This document shows positions 618 through 6,431 of a stretch of DNA of 6,431 nucleotides, piece after piece. The notes beneath the pieces are model-generated. The model was given only the letters and a program-made list of their open reading frames with translations, made no database searches and was not told where the DNA came from. The stretch is from CAYFZR01 sp046760505 [NCBI: Candidatus Hydrothermarchaeota archaeon]. Lineage in GTDB: Archaea > CAYFZR01. Numbering within the stretch: position 1 is the first letter of the stretch; the number at the start of each line of letters is the position of its first letter. The position numbers and the translations under genes were made by a program. The stretch lies in assembly GCA_046760505.1 (NCBI GenBank), contig JBHIEG010000057.1:1-6431 (forward strand). The letters are read 5' to 3'.

Positions 618-1583
618 TCAACGACGCCTTCGGTGTCGGGAGTAGGTATCAAAGCCAACAGCTCCTATGATAATAATCCCTTTGAACAAGTATTGCATGT
701 AAATGCTAACATTTAGCATATTAAACCCGTTACCTAATACAGTAAGTAGAAGCACCCCCACGACGGTTCTGGGGATACTTCCTTCCCCTCCCAGGATACT
801 AGTTCCTCCTATGACCACAGCAGCGATAGCATCTAACTCATAGTTGGTGCCACCAAGAGGGCTAGCAAGATTTACACGTGAAGCGAGGACTATTCCAGCC
901 AGCGCGGCCAAGGCACCGCTGAGTACAAAAGCAATTGTTCGGTAAAAGTTGATAAAAATGCCAGATAATTGGCTGGCTTCAATATTTCCTCCAATGGCAT
1001 AAATATACTTTCCGAACTTGGTACTATTCAAAACTATATGGGTAACAATTATCACAATAAGGAAGATTAAGATTGGCACAGGGAGACTATCAAGGTAACC
1101 TTGCCCAAAAAACAGAAAATCTTTTTTTACTCCTCGAATTGGATAGCCATTAGAATATATATACAGCATCCCTCTGGTAATGACCATTGTTCCAAGGGTA
1201 ACAATAAAGGAGCTCATAAACAGTCTTGTTACCAGTAGCCCATTTGCCAGTCCGATTGCTGCCCCGATAGCGATAGAAGCAATCACAGCTAACCAGAGAG
1301 AATGATTGTTTGAGAGAGTAACTGCTACTGCTCCAACAAAACCACAAATTGACCCAACCGATAAATCAAAGTTTCCTGAAACGATTATAAAAGTCATACC
1401 ACAGGCAATGATGCCAATGATAGAAGACTGCCTAATTATGTTCACCATATTTCCCACTGTTAAAAACCGATCTGAATAAATAGAAAGAAAAACAAAAAGA
1501 GCCAAGAACCCTAATATAATGCTGTATCTACTTAGTTCTACCTGTCTAATTTTTTGGCTAATTCCTTGACTTATTAATTTCAT
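618..1583 (-). CDS. Sugar ABC transporter permease, CUT2 (RbsC-like) family
   Basis: This 321-residue integral membrane protein is the channel subunit of a CUT2 sugar importer and would work as a dimer with the ATPase encoded upstream. After a short cytoplasmic N-terminus the first helix is about residues 20-36. The CUT2 hallmark GMTFIIVSGNFDLSVGS lies at 62-78, and the coupling-side signature YELDAIAAVVIGGTSILGG at 248-266 leads into the last helices. The C-terminus is basic (RHRRRR), as is usual on the cytoplasmic side. Length matches RbsC/XylH-type permeases. The segment normally reading GS-x-x-G-T is GSIPRTVVG here, an unusual Pro-Arg pair near 271-272. The start is ATG 1583-1581, with GAGAGGA seven nt upstream. 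It is last in the block, 41 nt after the TIM-barrel gene, so the two are probably cotranscribed. The substrate is unknown; pentoses, hexoses and polyols are all used by this family. Confidence 0.93.
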   Translation of the reverse strand: MKLISQGISQKIRQVELSRYSIILGFLALFVFLSIYSDRFLTVGNMVNIIRQSSIIGIIACGMTFIIVSGNFDLSVGSICGFVGAVAVTLSNNHSLWLAVIASIAIGAAIGLANGLLVTRLFMSSFIVTLGTMVITRGMLYIYSNGYPIRGVKKDFLFFGQGYLDSLPVPILIFLIVIIVTHIVLNSTKFGKYIYAIGGNIEASQLSGIFINFYRTIAFVLSGALAALAGIVLASRVNLASPLGGTNYELDAIAAVVIGGTSILGGEGSIPRTVVGVLLLTVLGNGFNMLNVSIYMQYLFKGIIIIGAVGFDTYSRHRRRR

Positions 1584-1624: not shown

Positions 1625-2872
1625 TCAAAGTTTTAGAGCTTCTGCTACCAAATCAATATTTTTCTTGGGAGTAGAGAACATGTCCCAGGAAAGGACAATT
1701 CCATCAGCATACTTTTGTAAATACCAGATGGATTGTTTCAATTTTGATGGGTCTGGCTTGCAAATTCCGCGAACACTGACAGTTTCCACTCCACCGTAGA
1801 TGGGAAAGCTCGCCTCTGTTTGTTTCTTGGCAAGCAAAACCTCCTGGGGAATAATCTCCTCACTAACACCTCCCTTTTGATAAATCTCATTTACCGAACA
1901 AGGAAGATCACAATGAAAGTAACCTTGAAGAAAGCTTAGGACCGACTCTTCCCTCAAATCTCTATTCATTTTAATAAGGCCTTCAACAATACTTTTAATT
2001 TCGTAAGGGATACCAGCAGGAGCAAATGTCTTTATATAGATCATGGGCTTAATCCAGTCTGCATATTTAAATAAATAGGAATAATTTTGACCAGTAGTGG
2101 GGGCAAGAGAGGGTGTAAAGCAGTCTAATCCGATCTTTAATTCATTTTTGTAAAAAATCTCTCGGGCACGCTTAATAACTTCCTTTATAGAATTAAATTT
2201 AAAATGCAGATGATCATTAATGATCTGATTCTCTCTAAAAGAAGAAAATAAGGTATTTAGAGCTTTTGATTGTGCGGGAACCTGTGAGGGCTTGATCTTC
2301 CTTATCTCTTTTATCAATCGCTCCAGTTCTAACCGAGCCTTATTTAAACTAATGCCCATATGCTCTGCCTTTCTCAAGCACCCTTGGCAAAAGCAACAAA
2401 AAGTTGACAAAAGACCACTGGCTGGGGAGTAGTAGCGTATTCTATCCAGAAAGACCCCCTTATAACCAGAGTTTCTTAATTTTTTTGATAAGCTTTCAAA
2501 GTTCTTCTTCAACACAGATTCAAATTCCCGACTATTGGGGCAGGCAAACAGAAAATTTTCTCCTGTATCCATCAACCATTTGGAACTAACCCTGCCTTTA
2601 TTGTACCCAACTACCTGAAAAGAACTCCGAAAATTAGGAATTTCTGATAAAACCGGGTACCAGAAATAAACTTGGGTATTGTAAATACCAGCCTTCCTTA
2701 AACATTCCTCATACAGTAAAGGATTATCACCCCATCCAATGATGATAATGTCTATGTGAAACTTATGTTCGATATAATCGATAATTCCTGTGAGGTGAGT
2801 TTTTTTTAGCGCCTCAGGTCTTGCCGAAGGAATGAAAACTTGGATACAGGTAACACACTTTTTGTCTACCAA
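1625..2872 (-). CDS. Cysteine-rich TIM-barrel protein, putative glycoside hydrolase-like
   Basis: I do not recognise a named family. The protein has no signal peptide or membrane segment. It looks like an alternating beta/alpha barrel: a strand ending FLDRIRYYSP (about 141-150, with D143, R144, R146), a cluster CCFCQGC (159-165), GLDCFTPSLAP (248-258), YADWIKPMIY (270-279), GGVET (360-364, E363) and a last strand GIVLSWDM (391-398). D or E at strand ends plus a C-x-C-x-x-C insert after strand four recalls uncharacterised glycoside-hydrolase-like barrels (GH10/GH42-like fold); this is resemblance, not a match. About twelve cysteines, including CVTC at 6-9 and C321-x3-C325, suggest metal binding. 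The TTG at 2872 is chosen because AAGGA lies seven nt upstream; a TTG at 2887 in the same frame adds five residues but lacks such a site. It sits between the ATPase and permease genes of a sugar importer, so a role on the imported compound is inferred. Confidence 0.75.
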   Translation of the reverse strand: MVDKKCVTCIQVFIPSARPEALKKTHLTGIIDYIEHKFHIDIIIIGWGDNPLLYEECLRKAGIYNTQVYFWYPVLSEIPNFRSSFQVVGYNKGRVSSKWLMDTGENFLFACPNSREFESVLKKNFESLSKKLRNSGYKGVFLDRIRYYSPASGLLSTFCCFCQGCLRKAEHMGISLNKARLELERLIKEIRKIKPSQVPAQSKALNTLFSSFRENQIINDHLHFKFNSIKEVIKRAREIFYKNELKIGLDCFTPSLAPTTGQNYSYLFKYADWIKPMIYIKTFAPAGIPYEIKSIVEGLIKMNRDLREESVLSFLQGYFHCDLPCSVNEIYQKGGVSEEIIPQEVLLAKKQTEASFPIYGGVETVSVRGICKPDPSKLKQSIWYLQKYADGIVLSWDMFSTPKKNIDLVAEALKL

Positions 2873-2944
2873 GTACCTATCCTTCAAAATATAAATTTTC
2901 TCAAGATGGGCCCCCAGAGTTTATTGACACAAGACAACACATTT

Positions 2945-3043: not shown

Positions 3044-3802
3044 TTATTTACCAGTTCCTATAAACATGAGTTTTACGATTTCATCTTTGTTTGTCTTTGC
3101 TGTTTCTTTGACGACCACCCTACGTCCCTGTTTTAAAACAAAAATCCGGTCTGAAACCGTAAAGATGTCTTCCAATCTGTGAGTAATAAATATTATAGAG
3201 ATACCATGCTCTTTCAAACGTAATGTTAGTTCCAGAACCTTACCTATCTCTTTCAGGGCAAGATTTGCCGTTGGCTCGTCCATTATCACAACTTTTGGAT
3301 TAAAGCTGGTAGCTTTTCCCACAGCTACCGCCTGCTGCTGGCCACCAGAAAGACGATCAATTCTTGTTCTGGGATTCTTGATATCTATTTTCAGTCTGTG
3401 GAGTACCTCAAGCGCTTCCCTCTCCATCCTTTTTTTTCTCAGAAAACCACCAAAGACTCTCCCCCGGGTGACTTCTCTACCGAGAAATAGATTACCGGCA
3501 ACATCCAGATTTGGACACAACGCGAAGTTCTGGTAAACCATCTCAATTCCAAGTTGTCTTGACAGGTGAGGACTGGTAATATGTATCTCTCTACCTTCGA
3601 AGAAAACTTTTCCTTCGTCAGCCTGATAGGCTCCAGTTAAAATCTTCATAAGAGTTGACTTCCCCGCGGCATTATCTCCCACCAGACCCAAGATTTCATC
3701 ATTTCTAAGCTCGAGATTTACCTTGGTGAGGGCTTGTAATCCGCCAAAAGACTTAGAGATACTCTTCATCTCGACTATATTCTTTTTTTCCATACTATTC
3801 AT
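3044..3802 (-). CDS. Sugar ABC transporter ATP-binding protein, single domain
   Basis: This is the ATP-hydrolysing subunit of the sugar importer, cytoplasmic and acting as a dimer on the permease. Counting from ATG 3802, all nucleotide-binding motifs are present in order: Walker A GDNAAGKST (42-50), Q-loop VYQNFAL (Q91), signature LSGGQQQAVAVGKA (151-164), Walker B VVIMDEPTANL (171-181, catalytic E176) and switch His in ITHRL (H208). At 252 residues it has one ATPase domain, whereas RbsA/MglA-type CUT2 ATPases are two-domain proteins near 500 residues; FrcA-like members are single-domain, so this is the likely subgroup. The ATG at 3802 is preferred because GAGGG lies eight nt upstream. ATGs at 3817 and 3796 are in frame, but the first has its AGGA too close and the second too far. 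It lies 344 nt after the binding-protein gene and 156-171 nt before the TIM-barrel gene. Confidence 0.93.
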   Translation of the reverse strand: MNSMEKKNIVEMKSISKSFGGLQALTKVNLELRNDEILGLVGDNAAGKSTLMKILTGAYQADEGKVFFEGREIHITSPHLSRQLGIEMVYQNFALCPNLDVAGNLFLGREVTRGRVFGGFLRKKRMEREALEVLHRLKIDIKNPRTRIDRLSGGQQQAVAVGKATSFNPKVVIMDEPTANLALKEIGKVLELTLRLKEHGISIIFITHRLEDIFTVSDRIFVLKQGRRVVVKETAKTNKDEIVKLMFIGTGK

Positions 3803-3837
3803 TTTCAATGCCCTCATTCCTGCCGTTAGTAAAATCG

Positions 3838-4161: not shown

Positions 4162-5115
4162 TTAGAACTCAGGGACGATTTCATCTACATTTTCTTTGGT
4201 CACTTTGATCTGGTTCACCGGTACAAATTCAGGGATGGTTTCGCCTTCAAGGTACTTAACAGCCATTTCTACCCCAACTCTTCCCTGGGTAACAGGAGAA
4301 ATCCACGTATCTCCATACATTTTCCCCTCTCTTATGGCATCCAATCCAGCTTTTGTTCCATCAATACCAACAACCGCAATCTCTCCCAGCTTTCCCGCTG
4401 CCTCGATTGCTTGAAGAGCACCTAGAGCCAATCCATCAAAGTGAGTGAAAAGAAAATCGATCTGCACGCCTGTCTGAAGATAATCCTCCATGATCTTCAT
4501 GGCTTTTTCTGGATCCCAACCAATTGCTGCCTGAATTCCGATGATTTTTATTTGTGGGTTCATCCCGATCTTCTCTATAAAGCCTCTTGTTCGATTTATT
4601 TGAGGGGGGGTTCCCGGGTGTCCCTCGATAATCAGCACATTTCCACCCTTCTTCCCCAAAACCTCTAAGGCCATCTCACCGCAGAGACCACCGGTATATG
4701 TCTCATCCTGACCTATATAACTTATAAGTCCAGGATATTTACTATGAGGATCTATGCCAACCGCGTTAACCAAAGCCATAATTGGTATACCTGCCTCTTT
4801 AGCTTTTTCTACCGCCGGTATAGCCCCTATTGCATCAGCAGGAATGATAATAATCAAATCAACCCCTCGAGATATAAAATTCTCAACTTGAGTTAGTTGT
4901 TTCTCTGCATCCCATTCTGCGAACATGTAAGCCAATTCCACTCCGAGTTCTTCAGCAGCTTCATCGCATCCTCTCTGCATCGCCGCAAAATATTCTACCG
5001 CTCCTGGAATGGAAATTCCTATAGTGTACTTCTTTGGCTCCGCGTAAACCAATTGGGGAAGTAAGAATATTAAACACCCCAACAACAGTAAGGTTATAAT
5101 TTTCCTTAAACGCAT
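4162..5115 (-). CDS. Sugar-binding protein of CUT2 ABC transporter (periplasmic-binding type 1)
   Basis: This 317-residue protein is the extracytoplasmic receptor that captures the sugar and delivers it to the permease. Residues 1-25 are a signal peptide: MRLRK, a hydrophobic core, then LVYA before EPKKY, a good signal peptidase I site. LLGC at 11-14 looks like a lipobox, but hydrophobic residues continue after the Cys, so lipidation is less likely. The mature part follows the ribose-binding-protein fold: YTIGISIPGAVEYFAAMQRG (30-49), QVENFISRGVDLIIIIPAD (76-94), EGHPGTPPQINRTRGF (164-179, usual position of a ligand-binding Arg), FTHFDGLALGALQAIEAAG (223-241) and VVGIDGTKAGLDAI (248-261). ATG 5115-5113 has an ideal AAGGAGG five nt upstream. 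The gene stands 127 nt after the NagB-like gene and is followed by a strong hairpin. The ligand is unknown; D227 and D252 suit polyhydroxylated sugars. Confidence 0.94.
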   Translation of the reverse strand: MRLRKIITLLLLGCLIFLLPQLVYAEPKKYTIGISIPGAVEYFAAMQRGCDEAAEELGVELAYMFAEWDAEKQLTQVENFISRGVDLIIIIPADAIGAIPAVEKAKEAGIPIMALVNAVGIDPHSKYPGLISYIGQDETYTGGLCGEMALEVLGKKGGNVLIIEGHPGTPPQINRTRGFIEKIGMNPQIKIIGIQAAIGWDPEKAMKIMEDYLQTGVQIDFLFTHFDGLALGALQAIEAAGKLGEIAVVGIDGTKAGLDAIREGKMYGDTWISPVTQGRVGVEMAVKYLEGETIPEFVPVNQIKVTKENVDEIVPEF

Positions 5116-5242: not shown

Positions 5243-6094
5243 TTACTTTGGTCCGACCTTCGGAGAATCTGCCGTATAGGAATCCACGTTAATTATACAA
5301 TCTGCATGTTCTTGAACAAAGGTGACAGGGTACTCCACACTTATCTCCCCTAGACAGGCTATTCGGAAGATCGTCCTCTGCCAGTCCCCACCGTCACAAT
5401 AGAGGCGAATCCTCTTGGAGGAAAGAATCTCTCTCATTCCAATGGTTACTGCCATAGGGGGTATCATCGAGGAGTTTCCTCCTGTTCCACCAATGCTGTT
5501 GATTACCACTGTATCAGGGGCTAATTGCACAACTCTGGTAAGCGAGTTCTTGAATTCGTCCCAGGATATGTTATACCACCTATTTATGAGCGGCTCATTA
5601 AAGGCAATGTGACCGTGATAGCCAATTCCTCCGTAGCAAGTATCAATCCCCCCAACTTCTTTAATTTTCTCAGTAATCTCGTCGATACGAAAAGGATGAG
5701 GAAAGTGAATGTGATCCTCAGGAATTCTTATCTCCTCATCAAGAAGGTCAAAAAGATTTTTTCTCATAAACCCCTCAAAGCTCATGGGATGATTTAAAGG
5801 AATAGGCCTTCCCTGCCAGTCCAGATATTCATCCATATTAAAGGTATGCACATTTTTCCAGCTTATTTTCCCCCGGTTTGAGATCTCCGCCAAGATAGGA
5901 TATTGAGGAGTGGGACCCACTGGCAAAATTATCCTGGTGGACTTTTCCTGAGCATTGTTCTGTTTGATTTCATCGGCTATGCTTTTAGCAAAGTGCTGGT
6001 ACAGGCTCTTGGTATCTGACAGAATATTCACCTTTACCTTGCTTACCTTAGGTAGCTTCTCCAGGGGCACGGCGAGTATTTGCGGTAAACCCAT
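5243..6094 (-). CDS. Divergent glucosamine-6-phosphate deaminase/isomerase (NagB) family protein
   Basis: NagB-family enzymes convert glucosamine-6-phosphate to fructose-6-phosphate plus ammonia in the cytoplasm. This 283-residue protein keeps the family framework: LPVGPTP (57-63), FNMDEYL (85-91, D88 at the place of catalytic D72 of E. coli NagB), LNHPMSFEGFM (100-110), GGIGYHGHIAFNEP (155-168, H162 and E167 for H143 and E148) and MAVTIGMREIL (214-224). By eye alignment, several positions differ from E. coli NagB: T41 is V59, G43 is P61, D141 is H160, R172 is I201 and K208 is W238. The T41-G43 loop, R172 and K208 help hold phosphate, so the substrate may not be glucosamine-6-phosphate. It carries about 18 extra N-terminal residues. 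ATG 6094 has AAGGAGG nine nt upstream. It sits 49 nt after the ROK gene, suggesting cotranscription. The gene symbol nagB is withheld because of the altered site. Confidence 0.85.
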   Translation of the reverse strand: MGLPQILAVPLEKLPKVSKVKVNILSDTKSLYQHFAKSIADEIKQNNAQEKSTRIILPVGPTPQYPILAEISNRGKISWKNVHTFNMDEYLDWQGRPIPLNHPMSFEGFMRKNLFDLLDEEIRIPEDHIHFPHPFRIDEITEKIKEVGGIDTCYGGIGYHGHIAFNEPLINRWYNISWDEFKNSLTRVVQLAPDTVVINSIGGTGGNSSMIPPMAVTIGMREILSSKRIRLYCDGGDWQRTIFRIACLGEISVEYPVTFVQEHADCIINVDSYTADSPKVGPK

Positions 6095-6143: not shown

Positions 6144-6431
6144 TTACTTAATAACCGCCAGGCCTTCCATTTTCAAGGGTTTAAGTACCTTTACCGATGC
6201 ACCAACTAAAACCCCATCCTCCCCTAACTTGGAAAATTCTATCCTTGGAACAAAGGGAATTATCCTTTTAATGTTCGACTTTATCTCCTCCAGGTAATCA
6301 TCTGGCAAAATTGAGATCCCACCTCCTATAATCACCAATTCCGGGTCAAGCACACAGGATATGTTGCTAATGCCGTAGGCAAGAAATTTCAATGTCTCCT
6401 TAAGAATCCCCCTGGCAATGCTCTCACCCTT
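6144..6431 (-). CDS. ROK family protein (sugar kinase or repressor), C-terminal end, partial
   Basis: The frame enters from the right edge in phase (first codon 6431-6429) and stops at TAA 6146-6144, leaving 95 residues. It reads KGESIARGILKETLKFLAYG, then ISNISCVLDPELVIIGGGIS, then the closing LGEDGVLVGASVKVL. This is the standard C-terminal ROK arrangement: a helix, the D/N-P-E-x-V-I-I-G-G-G motif and the G-x-x-G-A segment of the second actin-like ATPase lobe. The TTG at 6392 is only an internal codon; the protein is truncated by the window. ROK proteins are either cytoplasmic sugar kinases (glucose, fructose, N-acetylglucosamine, N-acetylmannosamine) or DNA-binding repressors with an N-terminal helix-turn-helix. 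The deciding N-terminal half and the zinc/catalytic motifs are not visible. Its place directly before a NagB-like gene favours a role in sugar-phosphate formation or sensing for this locus. Confidence 0.88.
   Translation of the reverse strand, partial: KGESIARGILKETLKFLAYGISNISCVLDPELVIIGGGISILPDDYLEEIKSNIKRIIPFVPRIEFSKLGEDGVLVGASVKVLKPLKMEGLAVIK

What the first reader, a model, noticed from the sequence alone, without database searches (positions are those of the whole stretch)
5243..6094. NagB-family enzyme with altered phosphate and relay residues
The fold motifs and the catalytic Asp/His/Glu positions (D88, H162, E167) are retained, but positions equivalent to E. coli NagB T41, G43, D141, R172 and K208 are V, P, H, I and W. 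The first two and the last two help hold the substrate phosphate, and D141 supports the catalytic His. This points to a subfamily acting on another phosphorylated or non-phosphorylated sugar. Residue comparison is by eye from recall of the E. coli sequence.
Basis: partly seen in the sequence, partly recalled or inferred. Interest (0 to 1): 0.6.

Follow-up and report, generated by a model that had tools for sequence, protein, structure and literature searches.

The report
NagB-like enzyme missing its phosphate loop
This gene belongs to an uncharacterised branch of the enzymes that strip ammonia from glucosamine-6-phosphate; the branch has a shortened phosphate-gripping loop, so it probably works on sugars that are not phosphorylated there.

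Summary
The ORF at 5243-6094 (-) is a real NagB-fold protein (model pLDDT 96; best PDB matches are GlcN6P deaminases). It belongs to a distinct clade seen in Chloroflexi, Acidobacteria, Armatimonadetes, Planctomycetes, Clostridia, Vibrio, Haloarcula and Lokiarchaeota. In 52 of 52 members examined the NagB phosphate loop P-T-G-G-T-P is shortened by two residues to P-x-G-P. None has Asp141; none has Arg at the aligned position 172, though 23 carry one a residue later; 4 keep Lys208. Catalytic Asp72 and His143 are kept in 52 and Glu148 in 48. Thirteen of 34 genomes with this clade also carry a NagB over the family cut-off. Deacylase candidates lie nearby in 22 of 48 loci. In seven clostridial clusters with an SsuA-type transporter the linked NagA-like protein lacks NagA's conserved phosphate-site Arg (0 of 7 keep it; 15 of 18 unlinked NagAs do). 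Best reading: a deaminating aldose-ketose isomerase for hexosamines without a 6-phosphate, acting before a kinase; in Clostridia possibly for a sulfo-amino sugar. The substrate is inferred, not shown.

The parts
5243..6094 (-). NagB-like enzyme, 283 aa, member of the short-phosphate-loop clade (P0001)
5912..5923 (-). codons of the shortened loop P58-V59-G60-P61 (E. coli P40-T41-G42-G43-T44-P45)
   Evidence: coordinates worked out by hand from the residue numbers and checked
6144..6431 (-). ROK-family sugar kinase, C-terminal 95 aa, cut by the window end; upstream in the same orientation, 49 bases away
4162..5115 (-). periplasmic sugar-binding protein (Peripla_BP_4; RbsB/AlsB-like)
3044..3817 (-). 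ABC transporter ATPase, 257 aa, related to the first half of MglA/YtfR-type proteins
618..1583 (-). ABC permease, AraH/RbsC-like (BPD_transp_2)
1625..2887 (-). 420-aa protein of unknown family between the ATPase and permease genes

Best explanation
A NagB-fold deaminating aldose-ketose isomerase of an uncharacterised clade, rebuilt to take a hexosamine (or close aldose) with no phosphate at C6. The sugar enters through the neighbouring RbsB/AraH-type ABC transporter. The NagB-like enzyme opens the ring with H162/E167, moves a proton between C2 and C1 with D88, and releases NH3 if C2 carries an amine. The free ketose is then phosphorylated by the neighbouring ROK kinase and enters glycolysis. 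In relatives a deacylase (NagA-like, PIG-L or Amidohydro_2) would come first and a PfkB, FGGY or PFK kinase after. Shown: fold, clade, loss of phosphate-binding residues at their aligned places, gene context. Inferred: absence of a C6 phosphate, the amine, the order of steps, the sugar.
For: Fold: model pLDDT 96.0, pTM 0.93; VIA Z 30.6 to 2bkv and 30.4 to 1dea, both NagB. D72/E73 and H143 in 52 of 52, E148 in 48 of 52; G43-T44 deleted in 52 of 52, D141 in 0 of 52, R at aligned 172 in 0 of 52, K208 in 4 of 52. In simulations of S. mutans NagB, Ser37, Thr38 and Lys194 hold the phosphate (PMC8369159, passages). NagB over the TIGR00502 cut-off in 13 of 34 of the same genomes. Deacylase candidates in 22 of 48 loci: NagA-like 11, PIG-L 4, Amidohydro_2 7. 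In the SsuA-type clusters 0 of 7 linked NagA-likes keep the conserved Arg, against 15 of 18 NagAs of the same set of genomes with no NagB variant of this kind beside them (Fisher p 0.0002). Changing this Arg abolishes activity in M. marinum NagA (PMC6016474, passages). Kinases nearby: ROK (window), ribokinase or ribokinase-like (L001; L023, L112), FGGY (L023, L032), PFK (6 loci). A GlcNAc 2-epimerase-family gene overlaps the start of the first of two NagB-like genes in L032.
Against: No activity data. Basic residues that could form another anion site: R/K at 244 in 51 of 52, at 227 in 47, at 228 in 46, at 240 in 29; Arg at 202, next to the R172 place, in 23. The window kinase could act first, giving a phosphorylated substrate. 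The linked PFKs keep the equivalents of R243 and R252, so that test is inconclusive. The Chloroflexi-phylum loci L104-L108, among the closest to the window, have Gfo/Idh/MocA and xylose-isomerase-like neighbours and no deacylase detected, which suggests a non-amino substrate there. Of 13 clade-linked NagA-likes one keeps the Arg (L140) and five have loop insertions that make the comparison unclear. In M. smegmatis NagA the conserved Arg points away from the ligand and its neighbour Arg-219 makes the contact (PMC6016474). In 21 of 34 genomes no NagB over the cut-off was found, so there the clade member might be the only deaminase.
Confidence: 0.47

Rival explanations
1. An aldose-ketose isomerase for a non-amino sugar or keto-sugar (for example an inositol- or 3-keto-sugar-derived hexose, or a sugar acid), with no deamination.
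For: L104-L108, 55-57% identical to the window protein, carry IolG-like Gfo/Idh/MocA dehydrogenases and xylose-isomerase-like TIM barrels, with no deacylase detected. L005, equally close, has UroD-family and Gfo/Idh neighbours, though also an Amidohydro_2 relative. The chemistry needs the same D72/H143/E148.
Against: Deacylase candidates in 22 of 48 loci fit an amino sugar better. The window has a ROK kinase and no dehydrogenase in view.
Confidence: 0.25
2. A GlcN6P or other hexosamine-6-phosphate deaminase whose phosphate is held by different residues (R240, R244, an Arg at 202 in relatives, or a shifted loop).
For: ROK kinase upstream in the same orientation; R244 conserved as R/K in 51 of 52, K/R frequent at 227, 228 and 240, Arg at 202 in 23 of 52; NagB is the nearest solved fold.
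Against: Thr41 and G43-T44 changed or deleted in 52 of 52 and K208 in 48 of 52; the window has no Arg at or next to the R172 place. The linked NagA-likes lost the matching Arg in 7 of 7 SsuA-type clusters. A NagB over the cut-off coexists in 13 of 34 genomes.
Confidence: 0.2
3. A 6-phosphogluconolactonase-like hydrolase.
For: Same Pfam family PF01182; 6PGL structures match at Z 20-24.
Against: TIGR01198 scores 28.6 bits against a cut-off of 124.45; the GHIAFNEP and MDEY signatures are those of the NagBs; NagB structures match at Z 25-31, above the lactonases.
Confidence: 0.03

Closest known systems
Glucosamine-6-phosphate deaminase NagB (E. coli b0678; TIGR00502)
   Same: Fold, D72/E73, H143, E148, GHxAFNEP signature
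   Different: Phosphate loop two residues shorter; D141 and R172 places changed, K208 usually lost; TIGR00502 score below cut-off; 30% identity to E. coli NagB
E. coli AgaI and YieK (NagB paralogues)
   Same: Same superfamily; position 141 is Asn in AgaI
   Different: 22% identity; both keep a full-length G-[AS]-T-P loop
6-phosphogluconolactonase (PF01182, TIGR01198)
   Same: Same superfamily fold
   Different: Signatures and score do not fit
Single-histidine LarA clusters of Blautia wexlerae and Streptococcus plurextorum (PMC12611868)
   Same: The cluster LarA of L016 is close to PDB 9q3j (1060 bits) and 9q2u/9q3k (832 bits). The paper lists 'glucosamine-6-phosphate isomerase', aldolase and TIM near the B. 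wexlerae gene, and a PFK-type enzyme and TIM near the S. plurextorum gene
   Different: Whether the B. wexlerae 'isomerase' belongs to this clade was not tested. The passages read do not discuss it further. The clusters here also show NagA-like, SsuA-type and, in three loci, TauE/SafE genes
Sulfoglycolysis, sulfo-EMP (isomerase, kinase, aldolase for sulfoquinovose; recalled)
   Same: Logic of isomerase, then kinase, then aldolase, with mutarotase and exporter genes
   Different: Here a deacetylase and a NagB-type enzyme would replace the sugar isomerase; no sulfosugar shown

Membership tests
PF01182 Glucosamine_iso / NagB fold | Pfam score over gathering cut-off; NagB fold | tested here: met
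   39 bits vs 27; Z 30.6 to 2bkv
Canonical GlcN6P deaminase (TIGR00502 equivalog) | Score over curated cut-off | tested here: not met
   116.5 vs 236.9 bits
Canonical GlcN6P deaminase | Catalytic Asp72, His143, Glu148 | tested here: met
   D88, H162, E167
Canonical GlcN6P deaminase | 6-phosphate site T41-G42-G43-T44, R172, K208 | tested here: not met
   V59, two-residue deletion, I201 (no Arg next to it in the window), Q239
Canonical GlcN6P deaminase | Asp141 relay to His143 | tested here: not met
   H160; 0 of 52 clade members have Asp; 15 of 18 references do
Canonical GlcN6P deaminase | GlcN6P to Fru6P + NH3 activity | not testable with these tools
   needs an assay
6-phosphogluconolactonase TIGR01198 | Score over curated cut-off | tested here: not met
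   28.6 vs 124.45 bits
Sulfo-EMP-type pathway (clostridial clusters only) | Sulfonate-type importer, isomerase, kinase, aldolase and exporter in one cluster | tested here: inconclusive
   SsuA-type SBP below its family cut-off (132.8 vs 163.5); SsuA-type genes in 7 loci (two of them only 24-26% alike), PFK, TIM-like and close LarA in 6, TauE/SafE in 3; PFK phosphate residues not lost

The most novel reading that the evidence does not exclude
The clade's clostridial members run a previously undescribed glycolysis for a sulfonated or sulfated amino sugar (a GlcNAc analogue with sulfonate or sulfate at C6): SsuA-type import, NagA-like deacetylation and NagB-like deamination without phosphate sites, then dedicated PFK, aldolase, TIM and single-histidine LarA, with a C3 organosulfonate leaving through a TauE/SafE exporter. 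The window's enzyme is an environmental cousin that uses the same phosphate-free chemistry.
Probability: 0.25. Interest if true: 0.82.

Novelty: new variant of a known kind. Interest (0 to 1): 0.55.

Why it matters
NagB is taken as a phosphosugar enzyme; the three annotated clade genes inspected here are called 'hypothetical protein' (two) or '6-phosphogluconolactonase' (one). A clade that spans bacteria and archaea and uniformly has a shortened phosphate loop implies amino-sugar routes in which deacylation and deamination precede phosphorylation. It also gives a concrete partner set and a testable substrate class for the single-histidine LarA nickel enzymes, whose substrate is unknown.

Tried and rejected
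Identifying the host genome: none is held for the window. Viral-contig scan: 4 pattern matches, no relative. Rfam on the window: nothing at gathering cut-off. PFK as a second test of the missing C6 phosphate: inconclusive, the PPi-type PFKs keep R243/R252 equivalents in the linked rows. 420-aa window protein: no Pfam or NCBIfam family, two meaningless PDB rows, homologues in 1 of 301 genomes of the L005 phylum, 2 of 251 and 3 of 247 genomes of two other phyla and 0 of 34 clade-carrying genomes; single-sequence model useless (pLDDT 34.9), so no fold search was run on it. Paper searches for a known sulfo-amino-sugar route or a phosphate-free NagB listed nothing relevant; the library lacks most subscription papers. 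A MurNAc-type reading for L023/L032/L035 was considered and left as a lead.

Rows and counts. L037 (runs off its contig) was dropped from the 52; of the hits, L098 and L100-L103 were not added to the tree. The 18 references include four that are not ordinary NagB (L057, L064, AgaI, YieK). NagA: one search lists 38 rows of 147 bits or more in 18 genomes; 28 were examined and the other ten, with three undecided ones refetched. They fall into 13 beside a clade member (7 SsuA-type with H-Q-H, 5 with a loop insertion, 1 with Arg), 7 beside some other NagB variant (left out), and 18 others (15 with Arg; L129, L135 and L177 without). 'Others' means no such NagB variant seen in the fetched locus of about 4-5 kb; L124 and L132 sit beside an ordinary-loop NagB. 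The seven were grouped after the alignment had been seen; over all 13 linked rows it is 1 of 13 against 15 of 18 (p 0.00004). Earlier partial counts are replaced by these.

Full report
What is there. The ORF at 5243-6094 (-) is intact, 283 aa. It matches Pfam PF01182 over its cut-off (39 vs 27 bits), but scores far below the curated cut-offs for GlcN6P deaminase (116.5 vs 236.9) and 6-phosphogluconolactonase (28.6 vs 124.45). Its nearest solved relatives by sequence are NagBs. An AlphaFold model from 50 sequences has pLDDT 96.0 and pTM 0.93; the best PDB matches are NagB (2bkv Z 30.6, 1dea Z 30.4), with 6-phosphogluconolactonases at Z 20-24.

The clade. tblastn on plasmids gave 56 records; of the 25 listed, four stand out at 39-44% identity (two Vibrio nigripulchritudo, two Haloarcula) and the rest are at 33% or less. 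L005-L038 group with the window, L039-L084 do not. A scan of 301 genomes of the L005 phylum (Chloroflexi) gave hits in 11, and flanks were taken for ten places. In a tree of 70 sequences 52 clade members separate from 18 reference NagB-family proteins with local support 0.98. L037 was dropped because it runs off its contig.

The residues. E. coli NagB was taken from MG1655. At E. coli positions 43-44 the clade has a gap in 52 of 52. Position 41 is V/L/I/C/Y in 52 of 52, against T in 17 of 18 references. D141 is kept in 0 of 52 (H 23, N 19, T 7, others 3; references D 15 of 18) and K208 in 4 of 52 (references 16 of 18). D72, E73 and H143 are kept in 52 of 52 and E148 in 48 of 52. R172 needs care: no member has Arg at the aligned column, but 23 of 52 have Arg in the next column, among them L005 and L104-L108; the window has Ile-Gly-Gly there. 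In the first alignment several of these Args fell on column 172. Simulations of S. mutans NagB assign phosphate contacts to Ser37, Thr38 and Lys194 and a gate role to Arg159 (PMC8369159, passages read); I equate these with E. coli G43, T44, K208 and R172 by motif, not by a call. W238 is conserved in 46 of 52. Basic residues that could still make an anion site are R/K at 244 (51 of 52), 227 (47), 228 (46) and 240 (29).

Not simply the housekeeping enzyme. In 13 of 34 genomes with a clade member a NagB over the TIGR00502 cut-off is also present, two of them as 635-aa frames. In the other 21 none was found over the cut-off; most of these are metagenome assemblies.

The neighbourhoods. Window: ROK kinase (cut by the window end), NagB-like enzyme, sugar-binding protein, ATPase, a 420-aa unknown and a permease, all on the minus strand. 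Across 48 clade loci (the window, 37, ten; some are short) a BLAST at E 1e-8 and half-length cover finds a deacylase candidate in 22: NagA-like 11, PIG-L 4, Amidohydro_2 7. The 47 other loci show NagA in 5 and neither of the others; that set is mostly Bacteroidota, so the comparison is confounded by taxonomy. Kinases near clade members are ROK (window), ribokinase or ribokinase-like (L001, L023, L112), FGGY (L023, L032) and PFK (six loci). In L032 a GlcNAc 2-epimerase-family gene overlaps the start of the first of two NagB-like genes.

The clostridial clusters. L016, L018, L020, L021, L022 and L028 hold an SsuA-type transporter, the NagB-like gene, a NagA-like deacetylase, PFK, class II aldolase (cut by the locus end in L020 and L028), a TIM-like protein and a LarA-like protein; L019 has only the transporter, NagB-like and NagA-like genes of this set. 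I call them clostridial from most of the record titles; L028 is titled 'Bacilli' and L020 and L022 only 'bacterium'. L016, L020, L022 and L028 have an aldose-1-epimerase-type gene, and L021, L020 and L028 a TauE/SafE exporter. The L016 LarA matches PDB 9q3j (Blautia wexlerae, 1060 bits) and 9q2u/9q3k (832 bits). The paper on those structures (PMC12611868; passages and section 2.6 read) reports a 'glucosamine-6-phosphate isomerase', aldolase and TIM near the B. wexlerae gene, no lactate racemisation by the S. plurextorum protein, and an unidentified 316.5-Da covalent ligand, speculatively modelled as a phosphorylated aldose. That model, if right, would speak against a pathway free of phosphate at that step.

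A second enzyme tells the same story. Of 38 NagA rows of 147 bits or more in 18 genomes, 13 lie beside a clade member. In the seven from SsuA-type clusters the protein reads H-Q-H where E. coli NagA has Arg227; five have a loop insertion and one (L140) keeps Arg. Of 18 NagAs with no such NagB variant beside them, 15 keep the Arg. Fisher p is 0.0002 for 0 of 7 against 15 of 18 and 0.00004 for 1 of 13; the grouping was made after seeing the alignment and related genomes are not independent, so these are indicative only. Seven rows beside other NagB variants were left out. The corresponding Arg is essential in M. marinum NagA, although in M. smegmatis it points away from the ligand; mycobacterial NagA is inactive on GlcNAc and accepts GlcNAc-6-sulfate with 7-fold higher Km (PMC6016474, passages). 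The equivalence of Arg227 with that residue is by motif and recall. The same test on PFK was inconclusive.

Interpretation. Two successive enzymes with altered 6-phosphate grips, deacylases and kinases nearby, and retained NagB catalytic residues fit deacylation and deaminating isomerisation before phosphorylation. SsuA-type import, TauE/SafE export and a private set of lower-glycolysis paralogues make a 6-sulfonate or 6-sulfate amino sugar the boldest reading for the clostridial clusters. For the window the simplest version is a free hexosamine turned into a free ketohexose, then phosphorylated by the ROK kinase. L104-L108, close relatives with IolG-like dehydrogenases and xylose-isomerase-like neighbours, warn that some members may not act on amino sugars at all.

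Noticed in passing
window 1625-2887 (-): 420-aa protein of no Pfam or NCBIfam family, with rare homologues at 26-33% identity in scattered genomes.
   Followed up: partly
window 3044-3817 (-): The sugar ABC ATPase has one nucleotide-binding domain (257 aa), whereas its best family matches (MglA, RbsA) have profiles of about 500 positions.
   Followed up: no
L002, L003, L005, L031, L032: Two clade paralogues lie on the same locus, up to about 8 kb apart, divergently transcribed in L002 and L003.
   Followed up: no
L001 11965-12861: On a Vibrio nigripulchritudo conjugative plasmid the clade member lies by nucleoside hydrolase, adenosylhomocysteinase, adenosine deaminase, ribokinase and a NupC/NupG transporter, which the amino-sugar model does not explain.
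   Followed up: no
L023, L032, L035: Clade members near a MurNAc-6-P etherase/GKRP-like SIS protein; in L023 also FAD-oxidase, Fe-S and ETF genes like those of lactate dehydrogenase complexes, hinting at a lactyl-sugar route.
   Followed up: partly
L057 540-1328, L064 331-1140: Another NagB variant with loop ATGNT and Asn at position 141, full-length loop.
   Followed up: no
L175, L182, L183, L184: NagA-like genes beside a different NagB-like type with signature GENGHIAFNDP.
   Followed up: no
L016 19098-20801: A methyl-accepting-chemotaxis-like protein (by eye) with a C-terminal part that clusters with the SsuA-type binding proteins.
   Followed up: no
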